Assembly: GCA_026225395.1 (NCBI GenBank)
Contig: JAMFSR010000031.1
Coordinates: forward strand, 1 to 64,000
Length of the DNA stretch: 64,000 nucleotides
Direction: 5' to 3'
DNA from: Granulicella sapmiensis
GTDB lineage: Bacteria > Acidobacteriota > Terriglobia > Terriglobales > Acidobacteriaceae
This document shows, piece after piece, positions 45,891 through 61,473 of this stretch. A program made the translations under genes and the position numbers. Numbering within the stretch: position 1 is the first letter of the stretch; every line of letters begins with the position of its first letter. Under the pieces are notes generated by a model. The model saw only the letters and a list, made by a program, of their open reading frames with translations. It made no database searches and had not been told where the DNA came from.

Positions 45891-45902
45891 GTTGAGGTTG
45901 GG

Positions 45903-48900
45903 TTAGAAGGTGTAGCGGAAGGAGGCTTGTGCGCGGCGGGCGTTGGTTCCGTCGGGGAAGCCGGAAGAGGCACTGCCTGCACCGAGTCCGGTGGAACCGC
46001 CTACGGGCTGTTGCGTTAGCACGCCCGTGTTGGTAGTTGTGTTCCAGGTGGATTTGTAAGCCAGCTGAACCACGCTGGTGTAGCGGATGTGGTTCAGCGC
46101 GTTGATGGCTTCAAAGCTCAACTGGATGGACTGGCCCTTGGGCAGCGGGAAGGCCTTGGTGAGGCGGCCGTCCAGCTGTACCGTGTGCCCGAGCGGCAGG
46201 TTGGCCGTGGGCAGGAACGGAACACGGGTACCGCCCGGGGCTTCAGCACCGATACCGCTCAACGTCGGTGTGGGCACGTAGAGGCGGGGGTCGGAGCTGC
46301 TGACCGTGAGTGTGGAGTCCACATACTGCGGGGTGGCGTAGGTGAAGATTGGAGCGAGCAGCCAGCCGTTGAGGGCCTGCGACGCGAAGACCGAGCTGTA
46401 ACCAACCTTTGGCGACTCAAGCACGGCGGTCAAGACCAGGCGGTGACGCTGATCTTCGAGCGAGCGGCCCTTTTCGTACGCGTAGCCGCTTTGACCGTTG
46501 ATGGTGGAAGCGCCGTTGAAGTAGGTGTCACCCTGATCGCTGAAGTAGTAGTTGCTGGTGAACGAACCCTGACCGAGATCGAGAGAGTGTGAGTAGGTGT
46601 AGGCGAGCGTTGTCTGCAGGATCTTGGAGACGCGCTCGTGGACTTCGCCGATGAGACCGTCGTAGTAGAGGCGGCCGGCGTTGTCGATCTGGAGGATCTT
46701 GCTGTAAGCCGGGTTGTAGGTGGTGTTGCCATTGGCGGAGTTGAAGTAGACCGGTGTGCTATAGCTGCCGACGGTCTGGCCGGTGGTGTTGACGAGGGAG
46801 AAGGTGTCGGTACCCGTTGGGGGACCGGCGTTGAGATCAGAGCGCTGCAGGAACTTGAGGCCGCGCGAGCCGATGTACGACGCGTCGACGCTGGTGTTCT
46901 TGCCGATCTGCTGCTCTACACCGAGTGTCCACTCCTGAACGTACGGGGTAGCGAGGGTGGGGATTGCAAAGCCGGAGTTGATCGAGCTGGGGCTCAGAAT
47001 CGAGTTGACCTGCGCGAGTGAGGTGAAGGTGTTGGGGAAGGTTGGGGCCACAGGGAACTGGGTGGCGCTGGTGTTGGAGAGCGTAAAGGACTTACGCACG
47101 CTGCCGCCGAGCTGCTGGAGGCGAGTGATGGTTGCGCCGGGAAGGCGGTTGTAGAAGATGCCGTAGTTGCCACGGATTACGGTCTTGCCGCCGTTGAGCG
47201 TCTGCGCGAAGCCGATACGGGGAGCTACGTTGCCCTTGGGCTGATTGATCTTGCCAACCAGAGGATTGGTAACGGCGTAGGTGGGCGGCGGCGGCTGCGT
47301 GAAGGTGGCGTACTCATACCGGATACCGATATTGAGTGCGAGGGTGGGGGTCGCCTGCCAGAGGTCCTGGGCGAAGAAGTCGTAGTCGCGGATGGTGATG
47401 CGCGTCTGCGGATGTCCAACGGCCTGGGCGAAGGTGGAGTAGTGCTTGCCTGCGCTGGAGTACGGCGACACAATCGAAACCGGATCGGTCGGGGAAGGTG
47501 TGAGGTCGTAGGCGAAGTTGGTGAAGTTGGTGTAGGTGTAGGCTCCGGGACCGGAGAACACGCCGTTCTCAACGCTGCGCAGGTAAGCGAGGTCGATACC
47601 GTACTTCAACTGGTGCTTGCCCTTGCTCTGCGAGAAGTTGTCGCTGAGGTCGAAGCGCTTTTCCGTGGGCTGGATGTTGGGCAAAGCGTTCTGCGAGACA
47701 CCCAGAGTGGAGATGCCGGCGACGGTGACCGAGGAGTGAACGTTGTCGCCCGGAGCGAGGTCGGTGGGCAGGCCCTGGAAGCGGCGGTCGGCGCTGAAGC
47801 CGAAGCGAACTTCGTTAACCATGGAGTTGGACACGAGGTAGGTGTTGGAGAAGCGTGCGTTGCGGACGTGCGTGCCGATGTTGTAGTTGGAGCCGGCAGC
47901 GCCTGAGCCGTCGGTGGTGGCTGCCGAGCTGACGCCGGCGTGGGTGGCCGTATAGTTGACCAGGTTGAAGTTCGCGCTGTAGGTGCTCTTGTCGCTGGGG
48001 CGGTAGTCGAACTTCACGAAGCCAGCGTTCTGGTGCAAGTTACGGGCAACGGTGCTCGGAACCGAAACGCGATTGATGAACGTTTGAACAGCGGCGCACT
48101 GCGCGGGAGTGGCAACGGCAGTGGGGGCGAGTGCAGTAGGTGCGCCGGCTCTGGTGTCTGCCACTGAATTACAAGACCCTACGACGTCTGTAGCTGCAGT
48201 CGTTCCAATGATTTCAGGAAGCAGCTGGCCGGTGGTCGTGTTGACATAGGTGCCGTTGCTCTGGAAGCTGCTGACGAGTGGGAAGTTGCGGATGGTGCCT
48301 TCATAGCTGGAGAAGAAGAAAAGCTTGTCCTTGATGATGGGACCGCCGACCGCGCCGCCGAACTGGTGGCGATACTCGGGTGGGTTGTAGGCGTTCGAGA
48401 CGCCGTTGGTGGTGAGCTTGGAGAAGAGGTCGATGGCGTTAAGGGTACGGTTGCGGAAGAACCAGAAGGCGGTGCCGTGGAACTGGTTGGTGCCGCTCTT
48501 GGTGAGGGTGTTGACGACGCCACCCGCGCTGCGGCCGAACTCAGCGGAGTAGCCCATGACTTCGGTGCGGAACTCCTGCACGGCGTCCATGGAGATGTTG
48601 GAGAGGAGGGCGGAACCGCCGGCGTTCTGGACGAACCACTGTTGAGTGATGTCGACACCGTCCTGCAGGAAGGAGTTGCCGGAAGGAACACCGTGGAAGG
48701 AGATTTCACCGCTGGTTGCGTCGGGAACGACGCCGGGGGTGAGAAGAGCGAACTGGTCAGCACGGCGGCCGTTGATGGGCAGATTCATGATCTGCTCCTG
48801 GTTGACGAGGGCCGAGACTTCGGTCTTGGTCAAATCCATGATGGGCGCGGTGGCTTCGGAGACTTCAACCGACTGCGTGCTGGAGATGGACAGTGTGACC

Positions 48901-49268
48901 GGGAGGGTGACTTCTTCACCGACGTGGACGGTGACGCCTTCAATCTTGGAAACCGTGAAGCCGGAGAAGGTGGCGTGGACGCTGTAACCTGCCGCGGGTG
49001 GCAGCGACGGCGCTGAGAAGAGGCCGTCGGAGGTGGCCTTGAGGTGGCGATCGATGCCGAGGCTGGTGTTGATGACCTCGACGTCAGCATTGGCGATGAC
49101 AGCGCCGGAGGGATCCTTGACAGAGCCGTTGATGGCGCCGAGGCCGGCGAGCGACTGGCCGAGGGCCGCTATCGAACTACAGAGGAAGAGTGCAATCAGG
49201 AGCGCTGCCGGCAGAAAGGAAAACCTGTTGCGGCTGGCGTGCGGGCGATAAGTTGATTCAAAGGGCAT
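45903..49268 (-). CDS. TonB-dependent receptor with carboxypeptidase-regulatory domain (second)
   Basis: A 1121-residue outer-membrane receptor of the same architecture as the one at 31832. It has a signal peptide (RFSFLPAALLIALFLCSSIA to LGQ), a carboxypeptidase-regulatory Ig-like domain (INGSVKDPSGAVIANADVEV), a plug (LPINGRRADQFALLTPGVVP, FLQDGVDITQQWFVQNAGGS) and a barrel ending RRAQASFRYTF with a terminal Phe. It is not close enough to the first to call it a recent duplicate. It is divergent from a LysR regulator followed by amidohydrolase and nucleoside hydrolase genes, so it may import nucleosides. No SusD-like gene accompanies it. Confidence 0.88.
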   Translation of the reverse strand: MPFESTYRPHASRNRFSFLPAALLIALFLCSSIAALGQSLAGLGAINGSVKDPSGAVIANADVEVINTSLGIDRHLKATSDGLFSAPSLPPAAGYSVHATFSGFTVSKIEGVTVHVGEEVTLPVTLSISSTQSVEVSEATAPIMDLTKTEVSALVNQEQIMNLPINGRRADQFALLTPGVVPDATSGEISFHGVPSGNSFLQDGVDITQQWFVQNAGGSALLSNISMDAVQEFRTEVMGYSAEFGRSAGGVVNTLTKSGTNQFHGTAFWFFRNRTLNAIDLFSKLTTNGVSNAYNPPEYRHQFGGAVGGPIIKDKLFFFSSYEGTIRNFPLVSSFQSNGTYVNTTTGQLLPEIIGTTAATDVVGSCNSVADTRAGAPTALAPTAVATPAQCAAVQTFINRVSVPSTVARNLHQNAGFVKFDYRPSDKSTYSANFNLVNYTATHAGVSSAATTDGSGAAGSNYNIGTHVRNARFSNTYLVSNSMVNEVRFGFSADRRFQGLPTDLAPGDNVHSSVTVAGISTLGVSQNALPNIQPTEKRFDLSDNFSQSKGKHQLKYGIDLAYLRSVENGVFSGPGAYTYTNFTNFAYDLTPSPTDPVSIVSPYSSAGKHYSTFAQAVGHPQTRITIRDYDFFAQDLWQATPTLALNIGIRYEYATFTQPPPPTYAVTNPLVGKINQPKGNVAPRIGFAQTLNGGKTVIRGNYGIFYNRLPGATITRLQQLGGSVRKSFTLSNTSATQFPVAPTFPNTFTSLAQVNSILSPSSINSGFAIPTLATPYVQEWTLGVEQQIGKNTSVDASYIGSRGLKFLQRSDLNAGPPTGTDTFSLVNTTGQTVGSYSTPVYFNSANGNTTYNPAYSKILQIDNAGRLYYDGLIGEVHERVSKILQTTLAYTYSHSLDLGQGSFTSNYYFSDQGDTYFNGASTINGQSGYAYEKGRSLEDQRHRLVLTAVLESPKVGYSSVFASQALNGWLLAPIFTYATPQYVDSTLTVSSSDPRLYVPTPTLSGIGAEAPGGTRVPFLPTANLPLGHTVQLDGRLTKAFPLPKGQSIQLSFEAINALNHIRYTSVVQLAYKSTWNTTTNTGVLTQQPVGGSTGLGAGSASSGFPDGTNARRAQASFRYTF

Positions 49269-49531
49269 GTGTGTCGAGACCTCTCGCAGTTCGGTTCCAT
49301 GGATGTAATGCCTGGTACGGACGAAAGAGCAGCAGGCGGAAGGATGAAGAAGGGCTTCGCCAAAGGAGATGAAGATCTGTTCCCTGGGTCGAGCAATTTA
49401 CGCGGGGAATGCACAGGGTAAAGAAGGGACCGCGCGCTAAAGACACGAATCACGTTTCCGCACGGAGGCAGAAAGGTGGGTTTTGGGAGTCGTTACAAGG
49501 ACGCCTAAATTGCTAAATTGTGAATTCAATA

Positions 49532-49544
49532 TCGATTCAAGCAC
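49532..49544 (-). promoter_or_regulatory. Candidate LysR-type operator upstream of the receptor (shared motif)
   Basis: GTGCTTGAATCGA on the minus strand is repeated exactly at 50707-50719. On the + strand the spot also holds a direct repeat ATTCAA-N5-ATTCAA. The 429-bp gap (49269-49697) otherwise holds an AT-rich stretch at 49510-49580 and no gene. Confidence 0.5.
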
Positions 49545-49697
49545 GCTAAAAGCGCGCCGTCCAATCGTTTTTCTGGAATTCAGATTTTGCTGCGGCAATC
49601 ACAGGATGTGGAAAAATCGCGAGGCGATGCTTTGACTTCTTGTCAGGGATGTGAAAAGTTCTTATTTACGGGCTTTTTTGCAATTGGAGGTACTCTC

Positions 49698-50594: not shown

Positions 50595-50706
50595 GTGACG
50601 AGCGGGAACGCGGTGGGCGCGGTGGTTTCGCAGAGGCGCGGAGTAAGGCAGATAGTGTGGGGTTATCAGGGGATTCGGAAATTTGATTTGAGTCGGTGCG
50701 TCTGAT

Positions 50707-50719
50707 GTGCTTGAATCGA
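50707..50719 (+). promoter_or_regulatory. Second copy of the shared 13-base motif, upstream of the amidohydrolase
   Basis: GTGCTTGAATCGA lies 178 bases before the amidohydrolase ATG and matches 49532-49544 exactly. The 302-bp gap (50595-50896) also holds a TTGACA at 50781 without a clear -10 partner. No gene was seen in the gap. Confidence 0.5.
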
Positions 50720-50896
50720 GGCATCGATATCATTCGCCTGGTTTGAGGCGCGGTCGTTGCGGCCGTCATGGGCTGCATTCTTGACATATATCTCTGCGCG
50801 ACGGAGTGGCCGAGCTGTCTTCTGTTGCGCCCAGGCTTTTGAACCCTTCCCAGGAACCGAACGGTTTCTTCACCCGGAAATTCGAAGGAGATCGCT

Positions 50897-52408
50897 ATGA
50901 GTGAGATGAAGGATGTTGGTGGGTTTTCACAAGGGTTTTCACGGCGGAGCTTTTTGAAAGCTGGCGCGGCTGCGGGTGCGGTGACGACTCCGGCGTTTGC
51001 GGCGGTGGAAGTGCTGGCTCCGGCTGCGCCGCCGAGGGACATCGATTTGTTGATTGCGGGCTGCGATGTGGTGACGTTCGATGACAAGAACACGGTCATT
51101 ATGGATGGCGCTATTGCGGTGAAGGGCAATGCGATTGTGTGGATCGGCAAGGCGAGCGACGCGGCGGGGATGTTTAGCGCGAAGGAGACGCTGAAGGCTT
51201 CGGGGCAGATTGCGATGCCGGGCATGACGGACACGCACTATCACACGGCGCAACAGTTTCTGCGGGGCGTGCACCGGACGACGCATCGCAAAGGGCCGAG
51301 CTGGAAGAAGATTCTGATTCCGTTTGAGAGCGGGTTGGATGAGCATGATGTGTACAACAGCGGCATGGTTGGGTACACGTCTATGATCAGCGCGGGGACG
51401 ACTTGTTTCCTCGAAGCGGGTGGGCCGCATCCGGACCAGATGGGCAAGGCGGCGGATGAGGTTGGGATTCGCGGAAGGATTTCGCTGAACACGTGTGATC
51501 TGGATGGCGATGGCGGGCCGCTGCCGAAGTCGCACATTATGACGACGAGCCAGGCGCTGAAAGAGAATGAAGCGCTGGTGAAGCGGTGGCAGGGGAACTC
51601 GCGCGTGAAGGCGTGGTTGTCGCTGCGGCAGATTCTGGTGAATACGGAAGAGCTGCGCATCAGCATGTCGAAGCTGGCCGAGGAGCTGGATACGGCGATC
51701 CATACGCATCTGTCGGAGGGGACCTATGAGGTCGACTACACGATGGAGAACTACAACATGCGTCCGCCGGAGTACTTCGAGAGCATCGGCATCTTCAACA
51801 AGCGGATGCACTGCGCGCACTCGATCTTTCTGACGCTGGACGATGTGGATTGCTATGCGAAGCACGACGCTTCGGTGGCGCACTGCGCGTTTGGCAACTA
51901 CAACGGCGGCCCGCAGCGGATGCTGGATATGGTGCGGGCGAAGATTCGTGTGGGATTGGGAACAGATGGTCCGAACTCGCGTGGATCGCTGGATTTGTTC
52001 CAGGTGAGCCACTATGCGGTGCTCGGCCAGCAGATCGGCTACGGCACGGCGTGGCATGCTCCGGCGCAGCTTACGTATAGCGACATGCTTCGGCATGCTT
52101 GTCGCGGCGGAGCGAATGCGGCGCATCTGGGCGATAAGACGGGGAGCCTTGAGGTTGGGAAGCTGGCCGATGTGGTGCTGGTTGGGCATGATGACTATGA
52201 CCAGTTCACGAGCATGGATCCGACGCTGACGCTGGCGCAGAACTGTGTGGGGCATCATGTGCGGTCGACGATTGTGGATGGCAAGGTTGTGATGAAGGAG
52301 CGTGAGTTTTTGACCGTCGACATTGAGAAGATGCGGGCGGATGTGAAACAGCGTTACCCTCGGATGATTGACCGGTATGAGAAAGCGATTCTGTTGACCA
52401 GTGGTTGA
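50897..52408 (+). CDS. Tat-exported metal-dependent amidohydrolase, nucleoside/nucleobase deaminase type
   Basis: A 503-residue exported amidohydrolase. Residues 1-35 carry a Tat signal (FSRRSFLKAGAAAG). Metal ligands are visible in order: HYHTAQ (HxH), HTHLSEGTYE (His), CAHSIFLT (His) and VGLGTDGPNS (Asp). The blocks follow the SAH/MTA deaminase and chlorohydrolase (TrzA/AtzA) subgroup. It would hydrolyse an amine off a purine, pyrimidine or triazine-like ring in the periplasm. It resembles the cytoplasmic amidohydrolase at 58992 but is longer by its signal. GAAGGAG precedes the ATG. Confidence 0.84.
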   Translation: MSEMKDVGGFSQGFSRRSFLKAGAAAGAVTTPAFAAVEVLAPAAPPRDIDLLIAGCDVVTFDDKNTVIMDGAIAVKGNAIVWIGKASDAAGMFSAKETLKASGQIAMPGMTDTHYHTAQQFLRGVHRTTHRKGPSWKKILIPFESGLDEHDVYNSGMVGYTSMISAGTTCFLEAGGPHPDQMGKAADEVGIRGRISLNTCDLDGDGGPLPKSHIMTTSQALKENEALVKRWQGNSRVKAWLSLRQILVNTEELRISMSKLAEELDTAIHTHLSEGTYEVDYTMENYNMRPPEYFESIGIFNKRMHCAHSIFLTLDDVDCYAKHDASVAHCAFGNYNGGPQRMLDMVRAKIRVGLGTDGPNSRGSLDLFQVSHYAVLGQQIGYGTAWHAPAQLTYSDMLRHACRGGANAAHLGDKTGSLEVGKLADVVLVGHDDYDQFTSMDPTLTLAQNCVGHHVRSTIVDGKVVMKEREFLTVDIEKMRADVKQRYPRMIDRYEKAILLTSG

Positions 52409-52439
52409 TGTCAAAGCAAGGAAGAGGTGTGGTTTGGGT

Positions 52440-53537
52440 ATGCGTAAGTTGCTTGCAGGTTTGTTGGTTGGCGTGGTGCTGTGTGGAGCGGGTGCGTCCG
52501 CACAGCGCTATGTAATTGCGGATCAGGATGCTTCGGGGCCGGGTGGGTCGGACATGATGTCGCTGCTGGTGTTTCTGCAGTCGCCGGATGTGCATCTGCT
52601 GGGGATTACGGTGGTGACAGGCGACTCATGGCGTGATGAAGAAGTGGCGCACACGCTGCGGTTGTTGGAGAGCGTGGGGCGCACGGATGTGAAGGTGTAT
52701 CCGGGCGCGGCATTTCCGCTGGAGCATTCGTATGAGTCGATGCAGCTTGAGGCGAAGCTGTACGGCATGCCTTCGTATCTTGGAGCGTACTCCGACTACC
52801 GGATGAAGCGGCCGTGGGATTCACTGCCGGTGATGAAGGAAGGTATGCCGACGACGAAGCCTGCGGAGGAGGATGCAGCGCATTTTATGGTGCGGATGGT
52901 GCATAAGTATCCGCACCAGGTGACGATCTATGCCGCGGGGCCTATGACGAATGTGGCGCTGGCTTGCAGGCTTGATCCGCACTTTGCGGAGCTCGCACAG
53001 GAGTTGGTGGTGATGGGTGGTGGGTTGTCTCCGCTGACGAAGGCCGATGAGTGGGTGAACAATCCGCGGCATGAGTTTAACTTCTGGTTCGATCCGGATG
53101 CGGCGAGCATTGCGCTCGAAGCGAAGTGGGCGAAGATCACGACGACGACCATTGATGTTTCGCTGAAGACGCATCCCGATCCGGAAGTGCTGGCTGGGTT
53201 GTCGAAGGCCGACAGCCCGGCGGCGAAGTACATTACGAAGTACTTCAGGCGGCCGGTGACGATCAATTATTTGTGGGATGAGTTGGCGGCTGCGGCGTGG
53301 ATCGATCCGACGATTATTACGGGGGAGCGGTATGTGTATATGGACGTCGATACACAGAAGGGCCCGACGTATGGCGACACGCTGACGTGGGATGAGAAGT
53401 ACAAGCCTGCGCTGCCGCTGAATAAGGTGCATGCGCAGGTGGATGTGGACCAGCCGAAGCTGGCGAAGTTTCTGGTGGATCTGTTGTCGAAGCCGGCGCC
53501 GAAGATGGTGCCTTCTACGGAAGAGTTGGTGAAGTAA
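52440..53537 (+). CDS. Exported nucleoside hydrolase-family protein 1, altered active site
   Basis: A 365-residue protein of the inosine-uridine nucleoside hydrolase family (N-ribosidase, releasing base and ribose). The signal peptide is MRKLLAGLLVGVVLCGAGAS. The metal loop reads DQDASGPGGSDMM instead of the usual DxDPGxDD, and the later block is WDELAAAAWIDP where HDPLAVA is usual, so the catalytic His is Trp. GPMTNVALAC and the EFNFWFDPDAASIALE block are kept. GTG at 52401 is possible, but ATG at 52440 gives a clean signal peptide. It is the first of three paralogues. Confidence 0.82.
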   Translation: MRKLLAGLLVGVVLCGAGASAQRYVIADQDASGPGGSDMMSLLVFLQSPDVHLLGITVVTGDSWRDEEVAHTLRLLESVGRTDVKVYPGAAFPLEHSYESMQLEAKLYGMPSYLGAYSDYRMKRPWDSLPVMKEGMPTTKPAEEDAAHFMVRMVHKYPHQVTIYAAGPMTNVALACRLDPHFAELAQELVVMGGGLSPLTKADEWVNNPRHEFNFWFDPDAASIALEAKWAKITTTTIDVSLKTHPDPEVLAGLSKADSPAAKYITKYFRRPVTINYLWDELAAAAWIDPTIITGERYVYMDVDTQKGPTYGDTLTWDEKYKPALPLNKVHAQVDVDQPKLAKFLVDLLSKPAPKMVPSTEELVK

Positions 53538-54736
53538 TGGTTGCAAGAGCAAAAGCTTTGACGCAAAGTTCGCAAAGTTTAAGCGCGAAGTTCGCAAAGT
53601 TTTGTGTGCGACTTCTCGCAGGATTGGTTTTGCCTGTGGGATTGGTGGCACATGCCGCTGCGCCGGATGTGAAGAAGGTGATCTATGACCAGGACTTCAA
53701 TGGGATTATTGGTGGGGATGCTGATCCGCTGGTGATGCTTTTGCAGGCGCCGAATGTGCAGGTATTGGGCGTTACGGTGATTACCGGTGATGGGTGGTTG
53801 AAGCAGGAGACTGCGGATGCGTTGAAGTTGTTGGAGGACCTGCATCGCGCGGATGTGCCGGTGTATATGGGAGCGGAGTTTCCGCTGGTGCAGTCGCCGA
53901 AGAACCTGGTGCGGTTGACGCATCTGTATGGCGGGTCGCGGACTGATCCTTTCCTGGGTGCTTATGGGGAGTTCAGTGAGCCGCCGGACACGCTGGTGGC
54001 TCCGATGGGTGGGTTTGCGATGACCAAGCCTGCGCCGGGGCCGGCGGCGGAGTTCATCATCGAGCAGGTTCACAAGTATCCGCATGAGGTGACGCTGTAT
54101 TGCGGTGGGCCGCTGACGAATGTGGCGTTGGCGATCAAGCTTGATCCTGAGGTTGTGGCGCTGACGAAAGAGATCGTGTTCATGGGCACGAGTCCGGAGA
54201 TGCAGCCGAAGACCGTTAACGTGATGTACGACCCGGAGTCCGCGCAGATAGTGCTGCATGCAGCTTGGCCGAAGCTGACGTTGATCACGGTGGATGTGGC
54301 GGAGAAGCTGCATCGCACCGTCGAGATGGCGGAAGCGATTGCGAAGGGTGGCAATCCGGCGGAAGCGAATTTGTATGAAGCGCTGGTGATGAAGCCGTAT
54401 CGCGAGAAGAAGCCGCTGCAGTGGTTTCGCATGCCGGATGAGCTGACGGCGGCGTACATCATCGATCCAACAATTGTGACGGAGATGCGTCGCTACTACG
54501 TGGACGTGGATACGATGCAGGGCATGAGCTATGGATCGTCCATTTACTGGGATGAAGTGCCGAAGGGTTATGCGGGTATTCCGTGGCCGGATAAGCCGGA
54601 GCCGAAGCGGCAGAAGCCGATTCCGCCCATGGATGCACGGGTTGCGGATGTGGTGTGGAACTTCGATGCGGTGAAGCTGCAGGCGATGTTTCTTAAAGCT
54701 ATGACGGAGCCGATGCAGGGAACGGCGAACAGATAA
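53537..54736 (+). CDS. Exported nucleoside hydrolase-family protein 2, altered active site
   Basis: A 399-residue paralogue of the gene before it, coupled by a TAATG overlap. The metal loop is DQDFNGIIGGDADP, and the later block reads PDELTAAYIIDP without the usual His. PLTNVALAIKLDPEV and MYDPESAQIVLHAAW are conserved. The N-terminal 30 residues include a direct repeat (CGCAAAGTT units at DNA level, 53562-53606) that makes an odd serine- and lysine-rich stretch before the hydrophobic signal (LLAGLVLPVGLVAHAAA). The true start could lie downstream of the repeat. Confidence 0.8.
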   Translation: MVARAKALTQSSQSLSAKFAKFCVRLLAGLVLPVGLVAHAAAPDVKKVIYDQDFNGIIGGDADPLVMLLQAPNVQVLGVTVITGDGWLKQETADALKLLEDLHRADVPVYMGAEFPLVQSPKNLVRLTHLYGGSRTDPFLGAYGEFSEPPDTLVAPMGGFAMTKPAPGPAAEFIIEQVHKYPHEVTLYCGGPLTNVALAIKLDPEVVALTKEIVFMGTSPEMQPKTVNVMYDPESAQIVLHAAWPKLTLITVDVAEKLHRTVEMAEAIAKGGNPAEANLYEALVMKPYREKKPLQWFRMPDELTAAYIIDPTIVTEMRRYYVDVDTMQGMSYGSSIYWDEVPKGYAGIPWPDKPEPKRQKPIPPMDARVADVVWNFDAVKLQAMFLKAMTEPMQGTANR

Positions 54737-54756
54737 CAGGGAACAGAGGAAGCAAG

Positions 54757-55347
54757 ATGTCAGAGAAGAAGCAGAATTATCAGAGCAAGGATGTTTGGTC
54801 GCGGACTACCAGTGTGCATGGGTATCCGATTGATGAGTTGCGGTCGGTGTTGCAGAAAAGCATTCGGCGTGGGCGGGTGGAAGAAGCGGCGATTGCGGCG
54901 TATGAGTTCTTTGCTTCCGGGCCGGAGTGCGAAGAGGTGCTTTGGCGGCGGCTGGAGATCATTGCGACAGAAGATGTTGGTTTGGGTATGCCGATGGCGC
55001 CTGCGATCATCAACTCGCTGTATGAGCAGGCGGGGCGGATGGTAGATGGCGGGGATCGCTGGATCTACTGCGCGCACGCGGTGCGGCTGCTGGCTACGGC
55101 ACCCAAGGACAATATGTCGATGGAGTTGAGCGGATGGACCAAGGAAGTGGTGGAACGCGGTGAGCGCAAGGTGTTGGTGGAAGACTTTATGGTCGACATC
55201 CATACGCGGCGCGGCAGTGAGATGGGCCGTGACGTGGCGCACTGGTGGAATGAGGGTGCGAAGCTGGAGGGCCGGATTCCGGGATATGAGCCGAAGTGGG
55301 GCAACTATCTGCGAAAGCTGGCGGGGGCGAAGACGTCCAATGAGTAA
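54757..55347 (+). CDS. Stand-alone MgsA/RarA C-terminal-like domain protein (no ATPase)
   Basis: A 196-residue protein resembling the C-terminal tetramerisation domain of RarA/MgsA recombination ATPases: PIDELRSVLQKSIRRGRVEE, then WRRLEIIATEDVGLGMP and VRLLATAPKDNMSME. The last part DIHTRRGSEMGRDVAHWWNE with GAKLE resembles C-terminal blocks of short phage proteins of this type (from memory). No Walker motifs are present, so it cannot hydrolyse ATP by itself. It overlaps the next nucleoside hydrolase by 8 bases. Its place inside a nucleoside operon is unexpected; it has no signal peptide. Confidence 0.72.
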   Translation: MSEKKQNYQSKDVWSRTTSVHGYPIDELRSVLQKSIRRGRVEEAAIAAYEFFASGPECEEVLWRRLEIIATEDVGLGMPMAPAIINSLYEQAGRMVDGGDRWIYCAHAVRLLATAPKDNMSMELSGWTKEVVERGERKVLVEDFMVDIHTRRGSEMGRDVAHWWNEGAKLEGRIPGYEPKWGNYLRKLAGAKTSNE

Positions 55348-56434
55348 ACTGCTTTGCGCGGTACTACTGCTGGCTGCTTCGGTGGCGGCATCCGCGCAGG
55401 GCGCGCGCCGGAAGGTGATTCTCGATCAAGATAGCGTGGGCCCGGGCGGGTCGAACATGCTGTCGATGCTGCTGGCGTTGCAGTCGCCGGATGTTGAGGT
55501 GCTCGGCATCACGGTCGAGAGTGGCGATGGTTGGCAGGATGAAGATGTTGCGCATGCGCTGCGAATGCTGGAGCTTGTTGGGCGTACGGATGTGCCGGTG
55601 TATCGAGGGTCTACCTATCCTCTGGTGAACTCCATGGAATCCATGGAACGCTGGGAGGGGATGTACGGCAAGATCCTTTACAAGGGCGCGTGGATGAAGG
55701 AGTGGCTGGAGAACAGCACGCAGGAGCCGCGGCGTTATCACGCGCCGGACGTGGTGCCTCCGATGAAGGAAGGCGAGCCGAAAATCAAGGCCGCGGAAGG
55801 GACGGCGGCGGAGTTCCTGGTACGCGAGGCGCGGAAGTATCCCGGCGAGATCACGATTATGGCGATGGGGCCGTTGACCAATGTGGCGCTGGCTGTGCGG
55901 CTGGATGATGCGTTTGCTGCGAACGTGAAGGACTTGTACTGGATGGGCGCGAGCTTGAATCCGATGCCGCCTAAGCGGGATGAGTATGCTCTGGAGTATC
56001 TGTTCAGTCCGCGCATGAACTTCAACGTGCGATGGGACCCGGAGGCGGCGAAGATATCGTTGCGTGCGGGTTTCAAGCGGATCGTAATTGTTCCGACCGA
56101 TGCGACGACCGAGACGAAGTTCACGCCGGAGATGTTGGAGACGTTGAAGAGGTCTGCATCGCTTGCTGCGAAGTACGCGGTGAAGTATCCGAGTGTGGGA
56201 ATGCCGCTGTGGGATGAGTTGACGGTGGCGGTGTGGCTTGATCCGAAGTTGATTGCGAACTCGGAGACGATGTCGCTGGATGTGAATACGGATTCGGGTT
56301 CGGCAGGCTATGGGGAGACGTTGACGTGGAGGCCGGGCAAGGGGCCGGGGTTGGGTGAGCCGGTGGTAGAGGCGGTGCGGACGGTGCATGTGGAGGCGTT
56401 CGACGGGATGTTTTTGGCGGGGTTGATGCGGTAG
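55340..56434 (+). CDS. Exported nucleoside hydrolase-family protein 3, most degenerate active site
   Basis: A 364-residue paralogue with signal peptide MSKLLCAVLLLAASVAASAQ. The metal loop is DQDSVGPGGSNMLSM: the final Asp of the motif is Asn here. The later block reads PLWDELTVAVWLDP, again lacking the His. GPLTNVALAVRLDD and FNVRWDPEAAKISLRAG are conserved, so the fold is kept. ATG at 55340 overlaps the MgsA-like gene. It may retain activity with altered chemistry, or act as a binding protein. A longer frame from 55160 is not supported. Confidence 0.8.
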   Translation: MSKLLCAVLLLAASVAASAQGARRKVILDQDSVGPGGSNMLSMLLALQSPDVEVLGITVESGDGWQDEDVAHALRMLELVGRTDVPVYRGSTYPLVNSMESMERWEGMYGKILYKGAWMKEWLENSTQEPRRYHAPDVVPPMKEGEPKIKAAEGTAAEFLVREARKYPGEITIMAMGPLTNVALAVRLDDAFAANVKDLYWMGASLNPMPPKRDEYALEYLFSPRMNFNVRWDPEAAKISLRAGFKRIVIVPTDATTETKFTPEMLETLKRSASLAAKYAVKYPSVGMPLWDELTVAVWLDPKLIANSETMSLDVNTDSGSAGYGETLTWRPGKGPGLGEPVVEAVRTVHVEAFDGMFLAGLMR

Positions 56435-56563
56435 GACTCCCAGCTTAAGACAGGACTTGAAAGCCTGGAGCATGTTCGAACGGCTGTAGGCATGGCGGGG
56501 CCTTCGGCTTCGCTCAGGATGACAGTTTAGTGGTGGGGTCATGGAGAGCGGTCGCGCTTTGCG

Positions 56564-56610
56564 CGATACCCCATCCTTTCGCAAAGTGCGCGAAAGGATG
56601 GGCCACCCGG
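56564..56610 (-). repeat. Dispersed hairpin repeat, copy I (reverse, divergent stem)
   Basis: Read on the minus strand: CCGGGTGGCCCATCCTTTCG to GCGAAAGGATGGGGTATCGC. The arms CCCATCCTTTCGC and GCGAAAGGATGGG are a perfect 13-bp match in which many positions differ from the other copies, yet pairing is retained. A GTCATCCTGAGCGAAGCCGA module follows on the same strand (near 56500). Confidence 0.82.
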
Positions 56611-56628
56611 TCGTCGTCGCGCTAGCTG

Positions 56629-57372
56629 CTATGTGAAGCGAAGACGTACATGTTTTTCCAGGGCGGTGGCGGCTTCGTAGAGAGCGGTTGATAGCAGCAT
56701 CGCGATGAGGCTGGCGCCGAGGGCGCGGTGCAGGTTGAACTCCTGCATGGTGACGGCGAACATGTTGCCGAGGCCGCCGGTCTGCATGAGAAACTCTGCG
56801 ACTACTGTGACGAGGATGCTGTAGGCGGTGCCTACGCGGAGAGCCACGGCTAGCTCCGGGATCGCAGCGGGAAGTGCGAGCAGTGTGAGGCGTTTGAAGC
56901 GGCCGGCGTGGAGCGTGGCGAAGAACTCTGCCGAGCGGCGCGGCAGGCGGCGCAGGCCAACGGCGGCGTAGACGAAGCTGGGAAAGAACGTCATGATGCT
57001 GACGGTGAGGAGTTCTGTGCGGCTCTGATAGCCGAAGAGGCGTGCGAGCAGCGGGATGAGGCAGACGATGGGGGTTGCAGTGAGGATGAGTGCGAAGGGC
57101 TGCAGCAGGCCGCTGAGGATAGAAGATGTCCAGCAGATGATGGCGAGCGCGAGGCCGGTGAGCATGCCGAGTGCGAGGCCGCCGAGGGCGAAGCCGAGCG
57201 TCCAGAGCGCGGGGACGAGATAGACCGGCGCGTGGAGGATGAGGTCTTTGGCAACGGAGATGGGCGAGACGACGACGATGCTGTTGTAGTTGGTGGTCAT
57301 CACCCAGGTCTGCCAGAGGATGAGGAGCAGCAGCACGGCCCAGGATTTTTTGAGGAAACGAAGCGGGTTCAT
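56629..57372 (-). CDS. ABC transporter permease (SsuC/TauC-like), second of two
   Basis: A 247-residue membrane permease with about six helices and the ABC-2/BPD permease loop (AEFFATLHAGRFKRLTLLALPA). It begins MNPLRFLKKSWAVLLLLILW. It starts at 57372, overlapping the preceding permease by 4 bases (ATGA). Two distinct permeases in one operon is typical of heterodimeric importers for small heterocycles or sulfonates. The frame extends further upstream but over the other permease, so it is rejected. Confidence 0.85.
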   Translation of the reverse strand: MNPLRFLKKSWAVLLLLILWQTWVMTTNYNSIVVVSPISVAKDLILHAPVYLVPALWTLGFALGGLALGMLTGLALAIICWTSSILSGLLQPFALILTATPIVCLIPLLARLFGYQSRTELLTVSIMTFFPSFVYAAVGLRRLPRRSAEFFATLHAGRFKRLTLLALPAAIPELAVALRVGTAYSILVTVVAEFLMQTGGLGNMFAVTMQEFNLHRALGASLIAMLLSTALYEAATALEKHVRLRFT

Positions 57373-58118
57373 GCGCGTCTCCGTTCTACGCTGCGTTCGA
57401 GCACGCCGATGAGGCCGTAGGCGGTAAGTGAGATGGTTGCGACTACGAGGACCGCTGCCCACATCAGCGGGATCTGGAAGTTCTGCATCGTGTTGAGGAT
57501 GACGATGCCGAGGCCCGTAGGTGCGCCGAACCACTCGCCGACGACCGCGCCGATCATCGCGGTGGTGACGCCGAGCTTGAGACCGCTGAGCAGCGCGGGG
57601 ATGGCGGAGGGTGTGTCGAGGTAGCGGAGGCGTTGGAAGCGGGTGGCTCCGGTGGCGGTGAAGAGCTGGGTGAGGCGGCTATCCGCTGAATGCAGGCCGG
57701 AGGTTGCGGCGACGTAGAGGAGGAAGAAGACGGGGATGGCGGCGAGGAGGATGGGTGTGGCTTGTCTGCCGGCGGTGATGATGAGCACCGGGCCGAGTGC
57801 GATGGAGGGAAGTGCGTTGACGACGACGGCGAGACGGTTGAGGCCGGGGCTTAATGCTGGGAGCAGTTGTGCGGTGAGTGCGGTTAGGCAGCCGAGTGTT
57901 GCGCCGAGAAGAAGGCCGAGGCCGGCGGAGGTGCTGGTGGCTATGGCGGAGCGGAGCAGGAGAGCTCGGCGGAAGTTGACGGTGAAGACGCTTGCTACGT
58001 CAGTGAAGGCAGGAAGTGTTTTGCCGCCGAGGTGTCGCTTGCCTGCGAGTTGCCAGAGCGCGAGCAGCAGCAGGAGGCCGAGGAGGCGGTAGGCGAGTTG
58101 TTGGAGGCGGTTGGTCAT
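57369..58118 (-). CDS. ABC transporter permease (SsuC/TauC-like), first of two
   Basis: A 249-residue permease of the NMT1/taurine/nitrate importer type, with PSIALGPVLIITAGRQATPI and LFTATGATRFQRLRYLDTPS followed by AIPALLSGLKLGVTTAMIGA, the usual EAA-like loop region (GATRFQRLR). It is followed by the second permease in an ATGA overlap and preceded by the ATPase gene 111 bp upstream on the same strand. Together they form a membrane pore dimer. Confidence 0.86.
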   Translation of the reverse strand: MTNRLQQLAYRLLGLLLLLALWQLAGKRHLGGKTLPAFTDVASVFTVNFRRALLLRSAIATSTSAGLGLLLGATLGCLTALTAQLLPALSPGLNRLAVVVNALPSIALGPVLIITAGRQATPILLAAIPVFFLLYVAATSGLHSADSRLTQLFTATGATRFQRLRYLDTPSAIPALLSGLKLGVTTAMIGAVVGEWFGAPTGLGIVILNTMQNFQIPLMWAAVLVVATISLTAYGLIGVLERSVERRRA

Positions 58119-58229
58119 GGTGTTGATATTGTGCGGCGTTTGGCGAAGAGCAACGGCAAGAACGGGAGGAAGCAGGTTCGCTCGCTGCGCTCGGAATGGA
58201 AAGCGAAGAAAAGCAAGAGCAACGGCGGA

Positions 58230-58991
58230 TTAGTCAGAGGGTTCGAGGCTTAGGGTCAGGTTGTCGACGAGGTGGTGGAAGGCTTCGAGGCGCATGGTTT
58301 CTACGGTGCGAGGGCGCGGGAAGGGTACGGTGACTTCGCGGAGGATGCGTCCCGGGCGGCCGCTCATGACGAGCACGCGGTCGGCGAGGAAGATGGCTTC
58401 TTCTACGGTGTGGGTGACGAGGATGGTGGTGATGCGCTTCTGCTGCCAGATACGTTGCAGCTCGAGGTTCATGAAGCGGCGGGTGACGGCGTCGAGCGCG
58501 CCGAAGGGTTCGTCGAGGAGAAGGAGTTTGGGGTCGAGGCAGAGGGCGCGGGCGATCGACGCCCGTTGGCGCATGCCTCCGGAAAGCTGGCTGGGGCGGG
58601 CGGTTTCGAAGCCTTTGAGGCCGACGAGTTCGATGAGCCCGGCGATATGGGCGCGGTCGGGTGTGCGGCCGGCGATTTGGAACGGCAGCTCGAGGTTGGC
58701 TTCGACGGTACGCCAGGGGAGTAGGGCGTGTTCTTGAAACGCGATGCCCAATTGTTGTTTGGCTTGTAAGTCTTTGGGTGGGAGGCCGTCGACGAGGACT
58801 GTACCGGTGGAGGGTTCGTCGAGGCCGGCGACGAGGTGCAGGATGGTGCTTTTGCCGCAGCCGGAAGGGCCGAGCAGCGCGATGAACTCGCCTTCCGCGA
58901 TGGTGAGGTCCATGGCGGAGAGTGCGAGCACGCGCTTGTCGCGGGCGAGGCGGAACTCCTTACTGACGTTGGTGAGCTGAATGGTCGCCAT
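58230..58991 (-). CDS. ABC transporter ATP-binding protein (SsuB/TauB/NitT type)
   Basis: A 253-residue ATPase. Walker A is GPSGCGKST (41-49), the Q-loop region is FQEHALLPWRTVEAN, the signature LSGGMRQRASIARALCLDP, and Walker B LLLLDEPFGALD followed by a switch His in LVTHTVEEA. The sequence is of the nitrate/sulfonate/taurine importer type. It starts one base away from the amidohydrolase stop codon, so the genes form a compact operon. It couples ATP hydrolysis to import. Confidence 0.92.
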   Translation of the reverse strand: MATIQLTNVSKEFRLARDKRVLALSAMDLTIAEGEFIALLGPSGCGKSTILHLVAGLDEPSTGTVLVDGLPPKDLQAKQQLGIAFQEHALLPWRTVEANLELPFQIAGRTPDRAHIAGLIELVGLKGFETARPSQLSGGMRQRASIARALCLDPKLLLLDEPFGALDAVTRRFMNLELQRIWQQKRITTILVTHTVEEAIFLADRVLVMSGRPGRILREVTVPFPRPRTVETMRLEAFHHLVDNLTLSLEPSD

Positions 58992-60395
58992 CTAGGCTGC
59001 GTCTCCTGGATCGCCGATGGCAAGGTCGAAGCGGCTCATGATGGTTTTGTATTGATGGCGGACGCGTTCGCGCATGGGTTCGAGATCGAGCGTTAGGAGC
59101 TCGCGGTCTTTCATGACAATGCGACCGTCGATGACGACGTCGCGGACGTCGCGGCCGACGGCGCTTTCTGCGAGCGTGATGATGGGGTCGTAGTTGGGGA
59201 ACTGATCGAGGTCGTCAGTGGCGACGAGGACGATGTCGGCCTTCATGCCGACGGCGAGCTGGCCGATATGTTGTTCGAGTCGTGCGGCGCGGGCTCCGCC
59301 GCGGAAGGCCTGCTTGAGCATCTGCTCGTGCGTTACGGGCGGATCGCAGTGGTAGGGCGTGCCGTTGACGGCTTGCTGGCCGAGGACTGCGCCGTGCATG
59401 ACCTGGAACATGTCGAGCGAGGCGCGGGTGGCGGCGCCATCGGTGCCGAGGCCGACGCGGATGTTGCGGCGCATCATTTCGAGAAGGCGTGGGCGGCCCA
59501 TGGTGTAGTTGTTCAGCGAGCAGTGGCAAGCGGAGACATCGCGTGCGGCGTAGAGGTCGAGCTCGTTGAGTGAGAGCAGAACGGAGTGTGCGGCGTGTAC
59601 GTGGTGGTCGAGACAGCCGGTCTTTTCGAGGTACTCGGCGGAGCGCATGGACCAGTTGCGGATGGCGAAGTCGACTTCGTAGGTGCCTTCGGCGAGGTGC
59701 GTGTGGATGGGTGTGTCGAGCGCGTGGGAGAGGTCGCGCATGCCGAGGCGGAGGGGCTCGGTGTTGACCATGAGCTGACGGAGCGAGAGCCAGGCGTTGA
59801 CGCGAGGATGGTCTTTCCAGCGGACGACGAGTTCTTCGCTGCGCCGGAGGGCGTCGGCGGTGTCCATGCGGGAGTGCGCGGGGAGATCGTCGGTGGTGTC
59901 CATGGTGGACATGGCGATGCGGCCGCGGATGCCAATATCGCCGGCGGCGCGGCCCATCTCGTCGGGGAATGGGCCGCCGGCTTCGAGGAAGCAGGTCGTG
60001 CCGCTGCGGATCATCGCGGAGTAAGCTGCGATGCCGCTGGCGTAGACGTCTTCGGGTTCGAGGCCGCTTTCAAACGGGATGAGATAGCGCTGCCACATGG
60101 GGCTGCGTAATTCGCCCTTGCGGCGGACTGAGGGCAGCTTGCCGTGGAGGAACTGCTGCGCGGTGTGGACGTGGCAGTCGATGAAGCCGGGCATGGCGAT
60201 CATGCCCGAGGCACGGAGGGTTTCGGCTGCGTCGAACTTGTCGCGGGCTTCGGCGGCGGTGCCGATCCAGACGATGGTGTCGCCGTCGATAGCGATGGCG
60301 CCCTGGCGGACGAGGGTGTCGTTGTCGTCGAAGGTGGCGATGTCCGCGCCGACGATGAGGAGGCTGATGGTCTGCTTGGCTTGTGCGTCGTTCAT
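58992..60395 (-). CDS. Cytoplasmic amidohydrolase, nucleobase deaminase type, in ABC operon
   Basis: A 467-residue paralogue of the exported amidohydrolase at 50897, without a signal peptide. Metal ligands: HVHTAQ (HxH), HTHLAEGTYE (His), HAAHSVLLS (His) and VGLGTDGAAT (Asp). Its neighbours are an ABC importer's ATPase and permeases and its own upstream substrate-binding gene, with a 4-base ATGA overlap to the latter. It likely processes the imported compound in the cytoplasm, perhaps the deaminated or amine-bearing ring released by the nucleoside hydrolases. The exact substrate is unknown. Confidence 0.84.
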   Translation of the reverse strand: MNDAQAKQTISLLIVGADIATFDDNDTLVRQGAIAIDGDTIVWIGTAAEARDKFDAAETLRASGMIAMPGFIDCHVHTAQQFLHGKLPSVRRKGELRSPMWQRYLIPFESGLEPEDVYASGIAAYSAMIRSGTTCFLEAGGPFPDEMGRAAGDIGIRGRIAMSTMDTTDDLPAHSRMDTADALRRSEELVVRWKDHPRVNAWLSLRQLMVNTEPLRLGMRDLSHALDTPIHTHLAEGTYEVDFAIRNWSMRSAEYLEKTGCLDHHVHAAHSVLLSLNELDLYAARDVSACHCSLNNYTMGRPRLLEMMRRNIRVGLGTDGAATRASLDMFQVMHGAVLGQQAVNGTPYHCDPPVTHEQMLKQAFRGGARAARLEQHIGQLAVGMKADIVLVATDDLDQFPNYDPIITLAESAVGRDVRDVVIDGRIVMKDRELLTLDLEPMRERVRHQYKTIMSRFDLAIGDPGDAA

Positions 60396-61420
60396 GTTGT
60401 TTGCGGGGTCCCGGTGGTTGGATTGAGTTCGCGCCAGGCTTCTTCCAGTACGCTGAGGTCGATGGTATGCGATGGCGGCGGCAGGTTGGTGCGGCCGGTG
60501 ATGGCGGCGATGTCGTACATCTTGGCGATGCTCTGCTGGCTGAACCAGAAGGGTATGTCGGTGCCGGGTTCGACTTCCACTTGCAGCTGCAGGCGGTTCA
60601 GCGTGGTTTGTTGCGGTAGCTCGAGGCCTAAGTCCGCGCCGTACTTTTCTACGGCGAGTCGCGGGGCAAGGTTGAGATTGGCGAGGTTGGCCGCGCGTGC
60701 ACGGAGCAGCGCGTTGAGGAAGCCGACCAGTTGTTTGCGCTCGCGCTGCAGGAAGCTGCGCTCTACGAAGAGTAGCGACGATGGAATTTTGTAGCCGAGG
60801 TCGTAGATGCGGGTGACGAAGAAGTCTTTATCGCGCTTGAGGCCCATGTTTTCGAGCATGGTGGGCTGGTTGGTGATGTAGCAGAAGTAGGCGTCGCCTT
60901 CACCCTGCAGCAGGGCTTCAGGGGAGAAGCCTACGGGGATGAGTTTGTAGTCCATGGGAAGGTGATTGATCTTGAAGGTCGCGATGAGCTCGTTGCGTTC
61001 GCTCGGGCCCTGGACGAGGAAGCGGCCGCCGACGAGGTCTGCGGGCTTGTGCATGGGTCGCTTGGGCAGCGTGATGAGGCCGGTGGGCAGGATGGGGAAC
61101 TGCGCGGCGAGGACGACGAAGTCGTTGCCCTGCATGACGGCGTCGAGGAACGGGAGCCACTCGGCATCGCCGAAGGTGCTTTGCTCGGAGGCGACGACGA
61201 CTACGGGTTGTGGCGCGTTGGGGCCGCCGGGAAGGTAGCTGGCGCGGACGCCTTCCTGCTTGGTGAAGCCCTGATCGAGCGCGATCCAGAGGTTGCCGTA
61301 TTCGACGTCCGGCAGCCAGCCGAGCGACCAGATGACTTCATGGCTCACCGCGCGGCGACAACCGGTGGCTGCGCCGAGCGTGGCGAGTGAGGCGAGTTGC
61401 GTGAAGCGGCGGCGATTCAA
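60392..61420 (-). CDS. ABC transporter substrate-binding lipoprotein (NMT1/THI5-like)
   Basis: A 342-residue periplasmic binding protein. MNRRRFTQLASLATLGAATG with GCRR carries both twin-arginine residues and a lipobox cysteine, so it is probably a lipoprotein. The fold is NMT1/SsuA-like (IWSLGWLPDVEYGNLWIALD, DLVGGRFLVQGPSERNELIA). This family binds small heterocycles, thiamine precursors, taurine, nitrate or riboflavin-like molecules. The start is TTG at 61420. It precedes the amidohydrolase with a 4-base overlap, so it belongs to the same operon. Confidence 0.85.
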   Translation of the reverse strand: MNRRRFTQLASLATLGAATGCRRAVSHEVIWSLGWLPDVEYGNLWIALDQGFTKQEGVRASYLPGGPNAPQPVVVVASEQSTFGDAEWLPFLDAVMQGNDFVVLAAQFPILPTGLITLPKRPMHKPADLVGGRFLVQGPSERNELIATFKINHLPMDYKLIPVGFSPEALLQGEGDAYFCYITNQPTMLENMGLKRDKDFFVTRIYDLGYKIPSSLLFVERSFLQRERKQLVGFLNALLRARAANLANLNLAPRLAVEKYGADLGLELPQQTTLNRLQLQVEVEPGTDIPFWFSQQSIAKMYDIAAITGRTNLPPPSHTIDLSVLEEAWRELNPTTGTPQTT

Positions 61421-61473
61421 AGTAAAAATTACCTTCCGAAGGAGCCGAACAATGAGCCGCTATCGCATTGCAT

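What the first reader, a model, noticed from the sequence alone, without database searches (positions are those of the whole stretch)
45903..61420. Putative nucleoside scavenging locus: receptor, LysR, exported nucleoside hydrolases, two amidohydrolases and an ABC importer
Gene order suggests a route: TonB receptor imports a nucleoside across the outer membrane, exported nucleoside hydrolases split it, a Tat amidohydrolase deaminates the base, an NMT1/SsuA-type ABC system imports it, and a second amidohydrolase acts in the cytoplasm. Each family is known, but I know of no described system with this combination, and three hydrolase paralogues with altered sites hint at an unusual base or a modified nucleoside. 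The ABC family fits small heterocycles. This is the best candidate for an undescribed system in the window.
Basis: inference. Interest (0 to 1): 0.8.

Follow-up and report, generated by a model that had tools for sequence, protein, structure and literature searches.

The report
Nucleoside scavenging locus with overlooked protein
A set of genes that probably lets a Granulicella-type soil bacterium import and break down nucleosides or their bases travels together with a small, uncharacterised relative of part of a DNA-repair protein, which also appears beside nucleoside-handling genes in distant bacterial groups.

Summary
The reported genes are there and form a real set, with one important omission. 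Between the second and third nucleoside hydrolases lies a 196-aa protein (54757-55347), here called MgsC: the C-terminal domain of the RarA/MgsA ATPase standing alone. In 200 sampled genomes of the order, 9 have an orthologue of the importer's binding protein; the same 9 have MgsC (plus one divergent match elsewhere); 7 of the 9, and none of the other 191, have the amidohydrolase. Close relatives of NH1 are far commoner (74 of 200 at E<=1e-100). So the core is ABC + amidohydrolase + MgsC, and the exported hydrolases are an accessory arm. In Hyphomicrobiales, MgsC (24 loci in 23 of 397 genomes) sits with a related ABC in 13 loci, abuts a deoxyribosyltransferase-family gene in 11 and lies in BMP-transporter/amidohydrolase clusters in 3; 7 show no link. 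In Cetobacterium the amidohydrolase near MgsC has a guanine-type purine riboswitch. Best reading: a patchily distributed purine/nucleoside scavenging module, related to known NMT1-type purine operons. Substrate and MgsC's role are inferred. The altered hydrolase motif is a subfamily trait (20 of 20 homologues checked outside the system) and does not point to an unusual base.

The parts
45903..49268 (-). TonB-type outer-membrane receptor with carboxypeptidase-regulatory domain
   Evidence: PF25183 3.6e-104, PF13620; a homologue (44-68%, one partial) lies in the stretches read of 6 of 8 relatives: L036, L038, L039, L042, L043 and the G141 hydrolase cluster L194; not seen in L037 or L041
49587..50594 (+). 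LysR-type regulator (start codon uncertain; 49698 or 49704 also possible)
   Evidence: PF00126, PF03466; start codons; homologue 59-79% within 6.3 kb of MgsC in G107, G053, G147 and G141
50897..52408 (+). AH1: Tat-signal TRZ/ATZ-type amidohydrolase (deaminase-like), 53% identical to AH2
   Evidence: PF01979 3.1e-41 and TAT_signal; identity; motifs HYH, HTHLSE, HCAH, GTDG read from sequence
52401..53537 (+). NH1: probably exported nucleoside hydrolase with DQDASGPGGSD motif
   Evidence: PF01156 6.1e-57; signal peptide read by eye; motif comparison
53537..54736 (+). NH2: probably exported nucleoside hydrolase paralogue
   Evidence: PF01156 1.8e-53; 42% to NH1
54757..55347 (+). MgsC: standalone RarA/MgsA C-terminal domain protein, no AAA+ domain found, no signal peptide seen by eye
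   Evidence: PF12002 7.9e-08, 32.8 bits vs cut-off 27; model pLDDT 91.8; best fold matches are RarA-type C-terminal domains; in the same 9 of 200 genomes as the SBP orthologue
55340..56434 (+). NH3: probably exported nucleoside hydrolase paralogue (second motif Asp replaced by Asn)
   Evidence: PF01156 1.4e-53 on 55160-56434; start 55340 chosen for its signal peptide, by eye; motif
56629..57534 (-). ABC permease 2 (start uncertain; the frame listed overlaps permease 1 by 166 bp)
   Evidence: PF00528
57369..58118 (-). ABC permease 1
   Evidence: PF00528
58230..58991 (-). ABC ATPase, nitrate/taurine/sulfonate-type
   Evidence: PF00005; best NCBIfam models SaoA and ntrCD, the 25 shown all below cut-off
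58992..60395 (-). AH2: amidohydrolase without a recognised signal, the core deaminase-like enzyme
   Evidence: PF01979 8.1e-38; a homologue lies between SBP and ATPase also in A. tumefaciens and Microvirga
60392..61420 (-). NMT1/THI5-type substrate-binding protein (SBP), probable lipoprotein by eye
   Evidence: PF09084 6.9e-18, 65.8 bits; 53-72% orthologues in 8 of 199 other genomes of the order

Best explanation
A patchily distributed module for scavenging nucleosides or purine-type bases. Core: an NMT1-type ABC importer (SBP, ATPase, two permeases), a cytoplasmic amidohydrolase that most likely deaminates the imported base or nucleoside (AH2), and MgsC. In this genome the core is joined by an extracytoplasmic arm: a TonB receptor for outer-membrane entry, exported nucleoside hydrolases that split the N-glycosidic bond, and a Tat-exported paralogue of the same amidohydrolase, with a LysR regulator. 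Shown: gene content, operon-like order, co-occurrence in the sample, recurrence beside nucleoside enzymes in other groups. Inferred: the substrate (most likely a purine nucleoside or base), the direction of each step, and the role of MgsC, which I take to be a soluble cytoplasmic catabolic protein, possibly an enzyme, because it recurs while the transporter and regulator families beside it change.
For: SBP orthologues (>=53%) in 9 of 200 genomes of the order (18 more genomes match only paralogues at <=30%); MgsC in the same 9; AH >=53% in 7 of those 9 and 0 of the other 191. In the window's genus 6 of 16 sampled genomes have the SBP orthologue and the same 6 have MgsC. Same SBP-AH-ATPase-permease-permease order in A. 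tumefaciens pAt15955 and Microvirga. MgsC in 23 of 397 genomes of the Pleomorphomonas order, 24 loci: 13 with an ABC whose ATPase is >=53% identical, 11 abutting a PF05014 match (of 24 PF05014 matches in those genomes), 3 in BMP-ABC/amidohydrolase clusters, one of these with adenine and cytidine deaminase. Bryobacterales MAG: NH1 divergent from MgsC-SBP-AH2-ATPase-permeases. Cetobacterium: amidohydrolase, RpiR, MgsC, EIIC, with a purine riboswitch at 68 bits just upstream of the amidohydrolase. NMT1/tauA genes with amidohydrolases are linked to purine degradation in PMC7373994.
Against: No substrate is tested. G084 and G137 keep ABC, MgsC, NH1 and NH2 but no AH1/AH2-type protein (best matches 1.2e-9 and 6.4e-10). 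7 of 24 Hyphomicrobiales MgsC loci show none of these partners. Agrobacterium and Microvirga have the ABC-AH operon with no MgsC in the 17 kb read. In Enterococcus and Subdoligranulum MgsC lies with an EIIC or a sugar-type ABC and I recognised no nucleoside enzyme beside it. Neither amidohydrolase reaches a cut-off among the 25 best NCBIfam models shown. No Rfam match at gathering level in the window. None of 76 viral MgsC loci holds a nucleoside partner from my reference set. Co-occurrence counts are not corrected for relatedness.
Confidence: 0.62

Rival explanations
1. The importer takes up a thiamine precursor or another pyrimidine (ThiXYZ/ThiY type) and the amidohydrolases trim it; the nucleoside hydrolases are incidental.
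For: SBP is NMT1/THI5 with a weak match to 3ix1, the formylaminopyrimidine-binding protein (E 0.0026; the better match, 3qsl at 0.00029, is an unnamed exported protein).
Against: No thiamine gene among the families identified at the locus; no Rfam match, TPP riboswitch included, at gathering level in the window. The neighbours of MgsC elsewhere are purine/nucleoside enzymes. PMC7373994 reports NMT1/THI5-like genes distinct from the thiamine ones and linked to purine degradation.
Confidence: 0.12
2. The module degrades another N-heterocycle or N-glycoside, such as a cytokinin, a plant nucleoside analogue or an s-triazine-like compound; AH1/AH2 act as TRZ/ATZ hydrolases.
For: AH1's PDB neighbours include 8-oxoguanine deaminase/hydroxydechloroatrazine ethylaminohydrolase, MTA/SAH deaminase, triazine hydrolases and guanine deaminases. 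SMP-30 lactonase and SDR genes in alphaproteobacterial versions suggest sugar oxidation. EIIC and sugar-type ABC partners of MgsC point to a sugar-containing substrate.
Against: Adenine deaminase, cytidine deaminase, nucleoside hydrolase, deoxyribosyltransferase-family genes and a guanine-type riboswitch near MgsC point to ordinary nucleosides.
Confidence: 0.17
3. Two unrelated convergent operons that happen to be neighbours in this genome.
For: In G107, G121, G053 and G147 no nucleoside hydrolase was found in the 20 kb around the ABC operon, and in G141 the halves are on different contigs.
Against: MgsC sits with the hydrolases in G141 and with the ABC in the other eight, always in genomes with the SBP orthologue. 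AH1 and AH2 are paralogues (53%) confined to ABC-bearing genomes in the sample. Adjacency recurs in G083, G084, G137 and, for NH1, in a Bryobacterales MAG.
Confidence: 0.08

Closest known systems
NMT1-motif (xanthine riboswitch) purine-degradation operons of Proteobacteria (PMC7373994; abstract start, passages and section 5 seen)
   Same: NMT1/THI5-like and tauA-type ABC transport genes with amidohydrolases like guanine/8-hydroxyguanine deaminases, assigned to purine degradation
   Different: No such riboswitch found here; exported nucleoside hydrolases, TonB receptor and MgsC are not among the associated genes listed in the passages read; the paper reports the motif only in Proteobacteria
RarA/MgsA (replication-associated recombination protein A), C-terminal domain PF12002
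   Same: MgsC matches PF12002 over cut-off and its model resembles 3pvs/2r9g C-terminal domains
   Different: No AAA+ domain, 196 aa; RRG in place of RG after QKxx, Trp63, and DxHTxxGxxxGR (37 of 38 sequences); found in catabolic operons
IUNH-family nucleoside hydrolases (PF01156)
   Same: Family match over cut-off for all three; EFN and WDE-type sites kept in NH1
   Different: Signal peptide by eye; N-terminal motif differs from DTDPGxDD; none of the NCBIfam equivalog cut-offs shown is met
Alphaproteobacterial RpiR-SBP-amidohydrolase-ATPase-permease-permease operon (A. tumefaciens pAt15955)
   Same: Same order of the five core genes; 40-64% identities
   Different: RpiR instead of LysR; no MgsC, NH or TonB receptor found in the 17 kb read; I know of no study of it and saw none in the listings

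Membership tests
IUNH nucleoside hydrolase (PF01156) | Profile match over gathering score | tested here: met
   194, 182.6, 182.9 bits vs 34.2
IUNH nucleoside hydrolase (PF01156) | DTDPGxDD calcium/ribose motif (motif recalled) | tested here: not met
   NH1 DQDASGPGGSD, NH2 DQDFNGIIGGDAD, NH3 DQDSVGPGGSN; first two Asp kept; 20 of 20 NH1-type homologues from other genomes also lack it
Specific deaminase families: 5'-deoxyadenosine, 8-oxoguanine, guanine deaminase (NCBIfam) | Score over curated cut-off | tested here: not met
   AH1 229.7 vs 522, 212.2 vs 532, 123.7 vs 375.4; AH2 243.6, 200.5, 122
Amidohydrolase TRZ/ATZ-type | PF01979 match and metal ligands HxH, H, H, D (recalled) | tested here: met
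   142 and 131 bits vs 25; motifs read by eye in both sequences
NMT1/THI5-type ABC importer | PF09084 binding protein with BPD permeases and ABC ATPase in one operon | tested here: met
   65.8 bits vs 20.5; PF00528 x2, PF00005
NMT1-motif riboswitch purine operon | Riboswitch upstream of the operon | tested here: not met
   No Rfam match at gathering in the window; at E<=1 in 45000-62500 only three unrelated families below gathering score
NMT1-motif riboswitch purine operon | Transporter carries purines or their oxidised products | not testable with these tools
   Needs a binding assay
RarA/MgsA | AAA+ ATPase domain | tested here: not met
   PF12002 is the only Pfam match at E<=0.001 in the 196 aa
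RarA/MgsA | C-terminal domain fold | tested here: met
   Foldseek E 4.8e-06 to 3pvs_D, TMq 0.55; 2r9g_L TMq 0.63

The most novel reading that the evidence does not exclude
MgsC founds an undescribed family of metabolic proteins: the RarA C-terminal domain, freed from its ATPase, has become a soluble enzyme (invariant Q33, K34, R37, R38, W63, R65, E72, D143, H149, T150, G153, R158) of nucleoside or N-glycoside catabolism, spread between Acidobacteriota, Hyphomicrobiales, Fusobacteriota and Bacillota and found with at least five kinds of transporter (two NMT1-type ABCs, BMP-type ABC, sugar-type ABC, lactose/cellobiose-type EIIC), with related proteins in phages.
Probability: 0.32. Interest if true: 0.75.

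Novelty: new variant of a known kind. Interest (0 to 1): 0.56.

Why it matters
Nucleic-acid debris is a nitrogen, carbon and phosphorus source in soil. A defined module (importer, deaminase, MgsC) that recurs across phyla gives a testable gene set for its uptake in Acidobacteriota. More unusually, a domain known from a replication-repair ATPase turns up alone as a recurring partner of nucleoside transport and cleavage genes; if it is an enzyme, a 'hypothetical protein' found in several phyla would gain a function.

Tried and rejected
Altered hydrolase sites as a sign of an unusual base: rejected as a specific clue. Riboswitches: nothing at gathering in the window or in L171, L172, L174, L175, L177, L178, L184, L079; of the eight loci (L191, L192, L193, L078, L071, L073, L271, L041) only L071 matched. 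I did not scan the other MgsC loci (L173, L176, L179-L183, L185-L190, L036-L039, L042, L043, L194, L072) nor L040, L274-L276. SBP structure: model poor (pLDDT 56, 6 sequences), so no fold search was run on it. Phage MgsC homologues: 76 viral loci hold none of the reference hydrolases, amidohydrolases, deoxyribosyltransferase or transporters at E<=1e-3, so phages give no support to the nucleoside link. The cupin at 61474-62094 gave no match at E<=1e-5 in the relatives' loci and is left out. Literature searches, papers listed of papers found: 7 of 7; 15 of 92; 1 of 1; 10 of 1,241; 1 of 1; 10 of 18; 10 of 36; 12 of 35; 3 of 3. In those listings I saw no paper on a standalone MgsA_C protein or on this gene set; the library lacks most subscription journals, so this is not proof of absence.
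Full report
Observation. The region holds the reported genes. On the + strand LysR, AH1, NH1, NH2, MgsC and NH3 follow one another, with AH1-NH1, NH1-NH2 and MgsC-NH3 overlapping by 8, 1 and 8 bp. On the - strand SBP, AH2, ATPase, permease 1 and permease 2 follow, convergent with the first set and 194 bp away.

The genome. The window is G000:C10, 4.98 Mb in 43 contigs. So the window is from Granulicella or a near relative (inference).

Conservation in the order. Of 200 genomes, 27 match the SBP at E<=0.001; 9, this one included, hold an orthologue at 53-100%, the other 18 only paralogues at <=30%. With the MgsC profile at E<=1e-10, 10 of 200 match: the same 9 at E<=2.9e-95 and G182 at 2.6e-18, where the 20 kb read shows no other locus protein. 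An AH1-type protein (E<=1e-60, >=53%) is in 7 of 200, all among the 9; G084 and G137 lack it. Within genus g1, 6 of 16 sampled genomes have the SBP orthologue and the same 6 have MgsC. These counts are not corrected for phylogeny. A sample of the phylum gave 1 of 297 at E<=1e-12: the Bryobacterales genome G261 used as its centre.

Layouts. G083: ABC-AH2, MgsC, NH2, NH1, AH1 and a second AH1-like gene adjacent. G084 and G137: NH1-NH2-MgsC, then a gene I read as AraC-like and an M28 peptidase gene, then the ABC without AH. G107: LysR-MgsC, the same AraC-like and M28 genes, then ABC-AH2. G053 and G147: LysR-MgsC beside ABC-AH2. G107, G053 and G147 also have a TonB receptor there. G121: ABC-AH2-MgsC. 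G141: AH1'-AH1-NH1-NH2-MgsC-NH3 on one contig and ABC-AH2 on another. Bryobacterales MAG L078: NH1 divergent from MgsC-SBP-AH2-ATPase-permeases. MgsC thus stays with either half.

Nucleoside hydrolases. 126 of 200 genomes of the order match NH1 at E<=0.001, 74 of them at E<=1e-100 by my count of the table, so NH1-type proteins are not specific to the module. Of 32 copies compared, all from the 11 genomes (two of them loci), 17 align best to NH1 or NH3 at >=47%; 15 of these carry GP(G/A)GS(D/N), two (L088, L089) another form; four NH2-like copies have their own variant; eleven distant ones (<=31%) show DxD followed by DD. In 20 NH1-type genes that I chose from the list, in 20 genomes without the ABC system, all 20 have GP(G/A)G(S/T)(D/N): 13 by pattern, 7 by eye. 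NH1 and NH3 have Trp before the Asp of the WDE site; I recall Trp at the equivalent place in purine-preferring (IAG-type) hydrolases but did not test it.

Hyphomicrobiales. In the order of the Pleomorphomonas MAG (G262; order name), 27 of 397 genomes matched at E<=1e-12; 4 are weak RarA-like matches, leaving 23 genomes with 24 loci, G262 included. I read all 24. Within about 9 kb: 13 have an ABC with ATPase 53-65% identical to the window's; L174 has one at 44%; 11 have a PF05014 protein directly beside MgsC (in L174 a short one, below the family cut-off); 3 (L175, L185, L193) have a BMP-type ABC and an amidohydrolase divergent from MgsC, with a nucleoside hydrolase in L175 and L193, adenine deaminase in L193 and L185 and cytidine deaminase in L193; 7 (L173, L176, L186-L190) have none of these. 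The 11 loci with PF05014 overlap the 13 with the ABC in 10. In the same 23 genomes PF05014 gives 24 matches in 19 genomes, 11 of them abutting MgsC; in genomes of 3.4-5.9 Mb chance would give well under one (estimate). PF01156 is found in all 23, so its presence alone says nothing there. MgsC goes with two NMT1-type transporters: window-like (SBP 40-45%, MgsC 39-42%) and a divergent one (SBP 23-24%, MgsC 53-61%; L079, L171, L172). So it is not a fixed subunit of one transporter.

Other phyla. A plasmid search gave 18 records. Cetobacterium: amidohydrolase, RpiR, MgsC, EIIC, with a purine riboswitch (RF00167, 68.1 bits vs 37) just upstream of the amidohydrolase. The switching base reads C (ACUA), which I recall as the guanine type; the link to MgsC is proximity only. 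Enterococcus: RpiR/SIS gene, MgsC, EIIC, no enzyme recognised. Subdoligranulum: MgsC right after genes that read as a sugar-type ABC (my reading, no family search). Bradyrhizobium: a 31% homologue, no partner seen.

Core operon without MgsC. A. tumefaciens pAt15955 has RpiR, SBP (41%), AH (48%), ATPase (64%) and permeases (40-41%) in the same order, Microvirga likewise (40-60%), and Kozakia baliensis RpiR, SMP-30, permeases, SBP and AH. Plasmid location and patchy spread suggest horizontal transfer (inference).

MgsC. The model has pLDDT 91.8; the 18 matches at E<=0.001 are all RarA-type proteins or their C-terminal domains. Over 38 bacterial MgsC sequences (window plus 37 loci) D12, D26, Q33, K34, R37, R38, E50, W63, R65, E72, G75, G77, L88, A108, R110, K117, D143, H149, T150, G153, G157 and R158 are invariant, and 37 of 38 match D-x-H-[TS]-x-x-G-x3-G-[RK] (L190 does not). 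In an alignment of the window's and five other bacterial MgsC with 28 of the 76 viral homologues D147, H149 and G153 are invariant, and 22 of the 28 match the motif; the viral set was found with patterns around LQKxIRRG and EExLWRRL, so its invariance there is partly built in. RarA structures show D-x-H-Y-x-G or weaker forms, and RG instead of RRG. Conserved charged residues without an ATPase suggest ligand binding or catalysis; this is inference.

Mechanism. Inferred route here: the TonB receptor admits a nucleoside; NH1-NH3 split it in the periplasm; AH1 may deaminate there; the ABC imports base or nucleoside; AH2 deaminates in the cytoplasm; MgsC acts on an intermediate. In Hyphomicrobiales a deoxyribosyltransferase-family protein would do the N-glycosidic step inside; SDR and SMP-30 genes (L079 both, L177 SMP-30, L192 SDR) suggest oxidation of the sugar. 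The published NMT1-motif operons (PMC7373994, section 5 and passages read) make purines the most likely substrate. No riboswitch was found in this window.

Verdict. A new variant of a known kind: an NMT1-type purine/nucleoside scavenging locus with an exported arm and a recurrent, uncharacterised partner protein.

Noticed in passing
window 62368 onward and L044 1-4505: A PSCyt1/PSCyt2 (DUF1549) gene and a DUF1501 gene (81-87% to that of L036) lie beside the SBP end of the ABC operon in 6 of 9 genomes (window, L036, L040-L043), with an alpha/beta hydrolase gene in four of the six; L037 has the hydrolase gene alone. Role unknown.
   Followed up: partly
L071 7113-7210 (-): Purine riboswitch (RF00167, 68 bits) upstream of an amidohydrolase on a Cetobacterium somerae plasmid.
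   Followed up: yes
L195-L270: 76 viral contigs encode MgsC-like standalone proteins with none of the reference nucleoside genes nearby.
   Followed up: partly
G168:C17, G157:C106, G067:C18: Clusters of four to six nucleoside hydrolase paralogues within about 10-25 kb in some genomes of the order.
   Followed up: no
L174 8568-8855 (-): The deoxyribosyltransferase-family gene beside MgsC is short and below the family cut-off, possibly decayed.
   Followed up: no
L193 9251-10003 (-), L175, L185: A GATase1_like (PF07090) gene of unknown substrate and a LacI-like gene accompany MgsC in all three BMP-type clusters.
   Followed up: no
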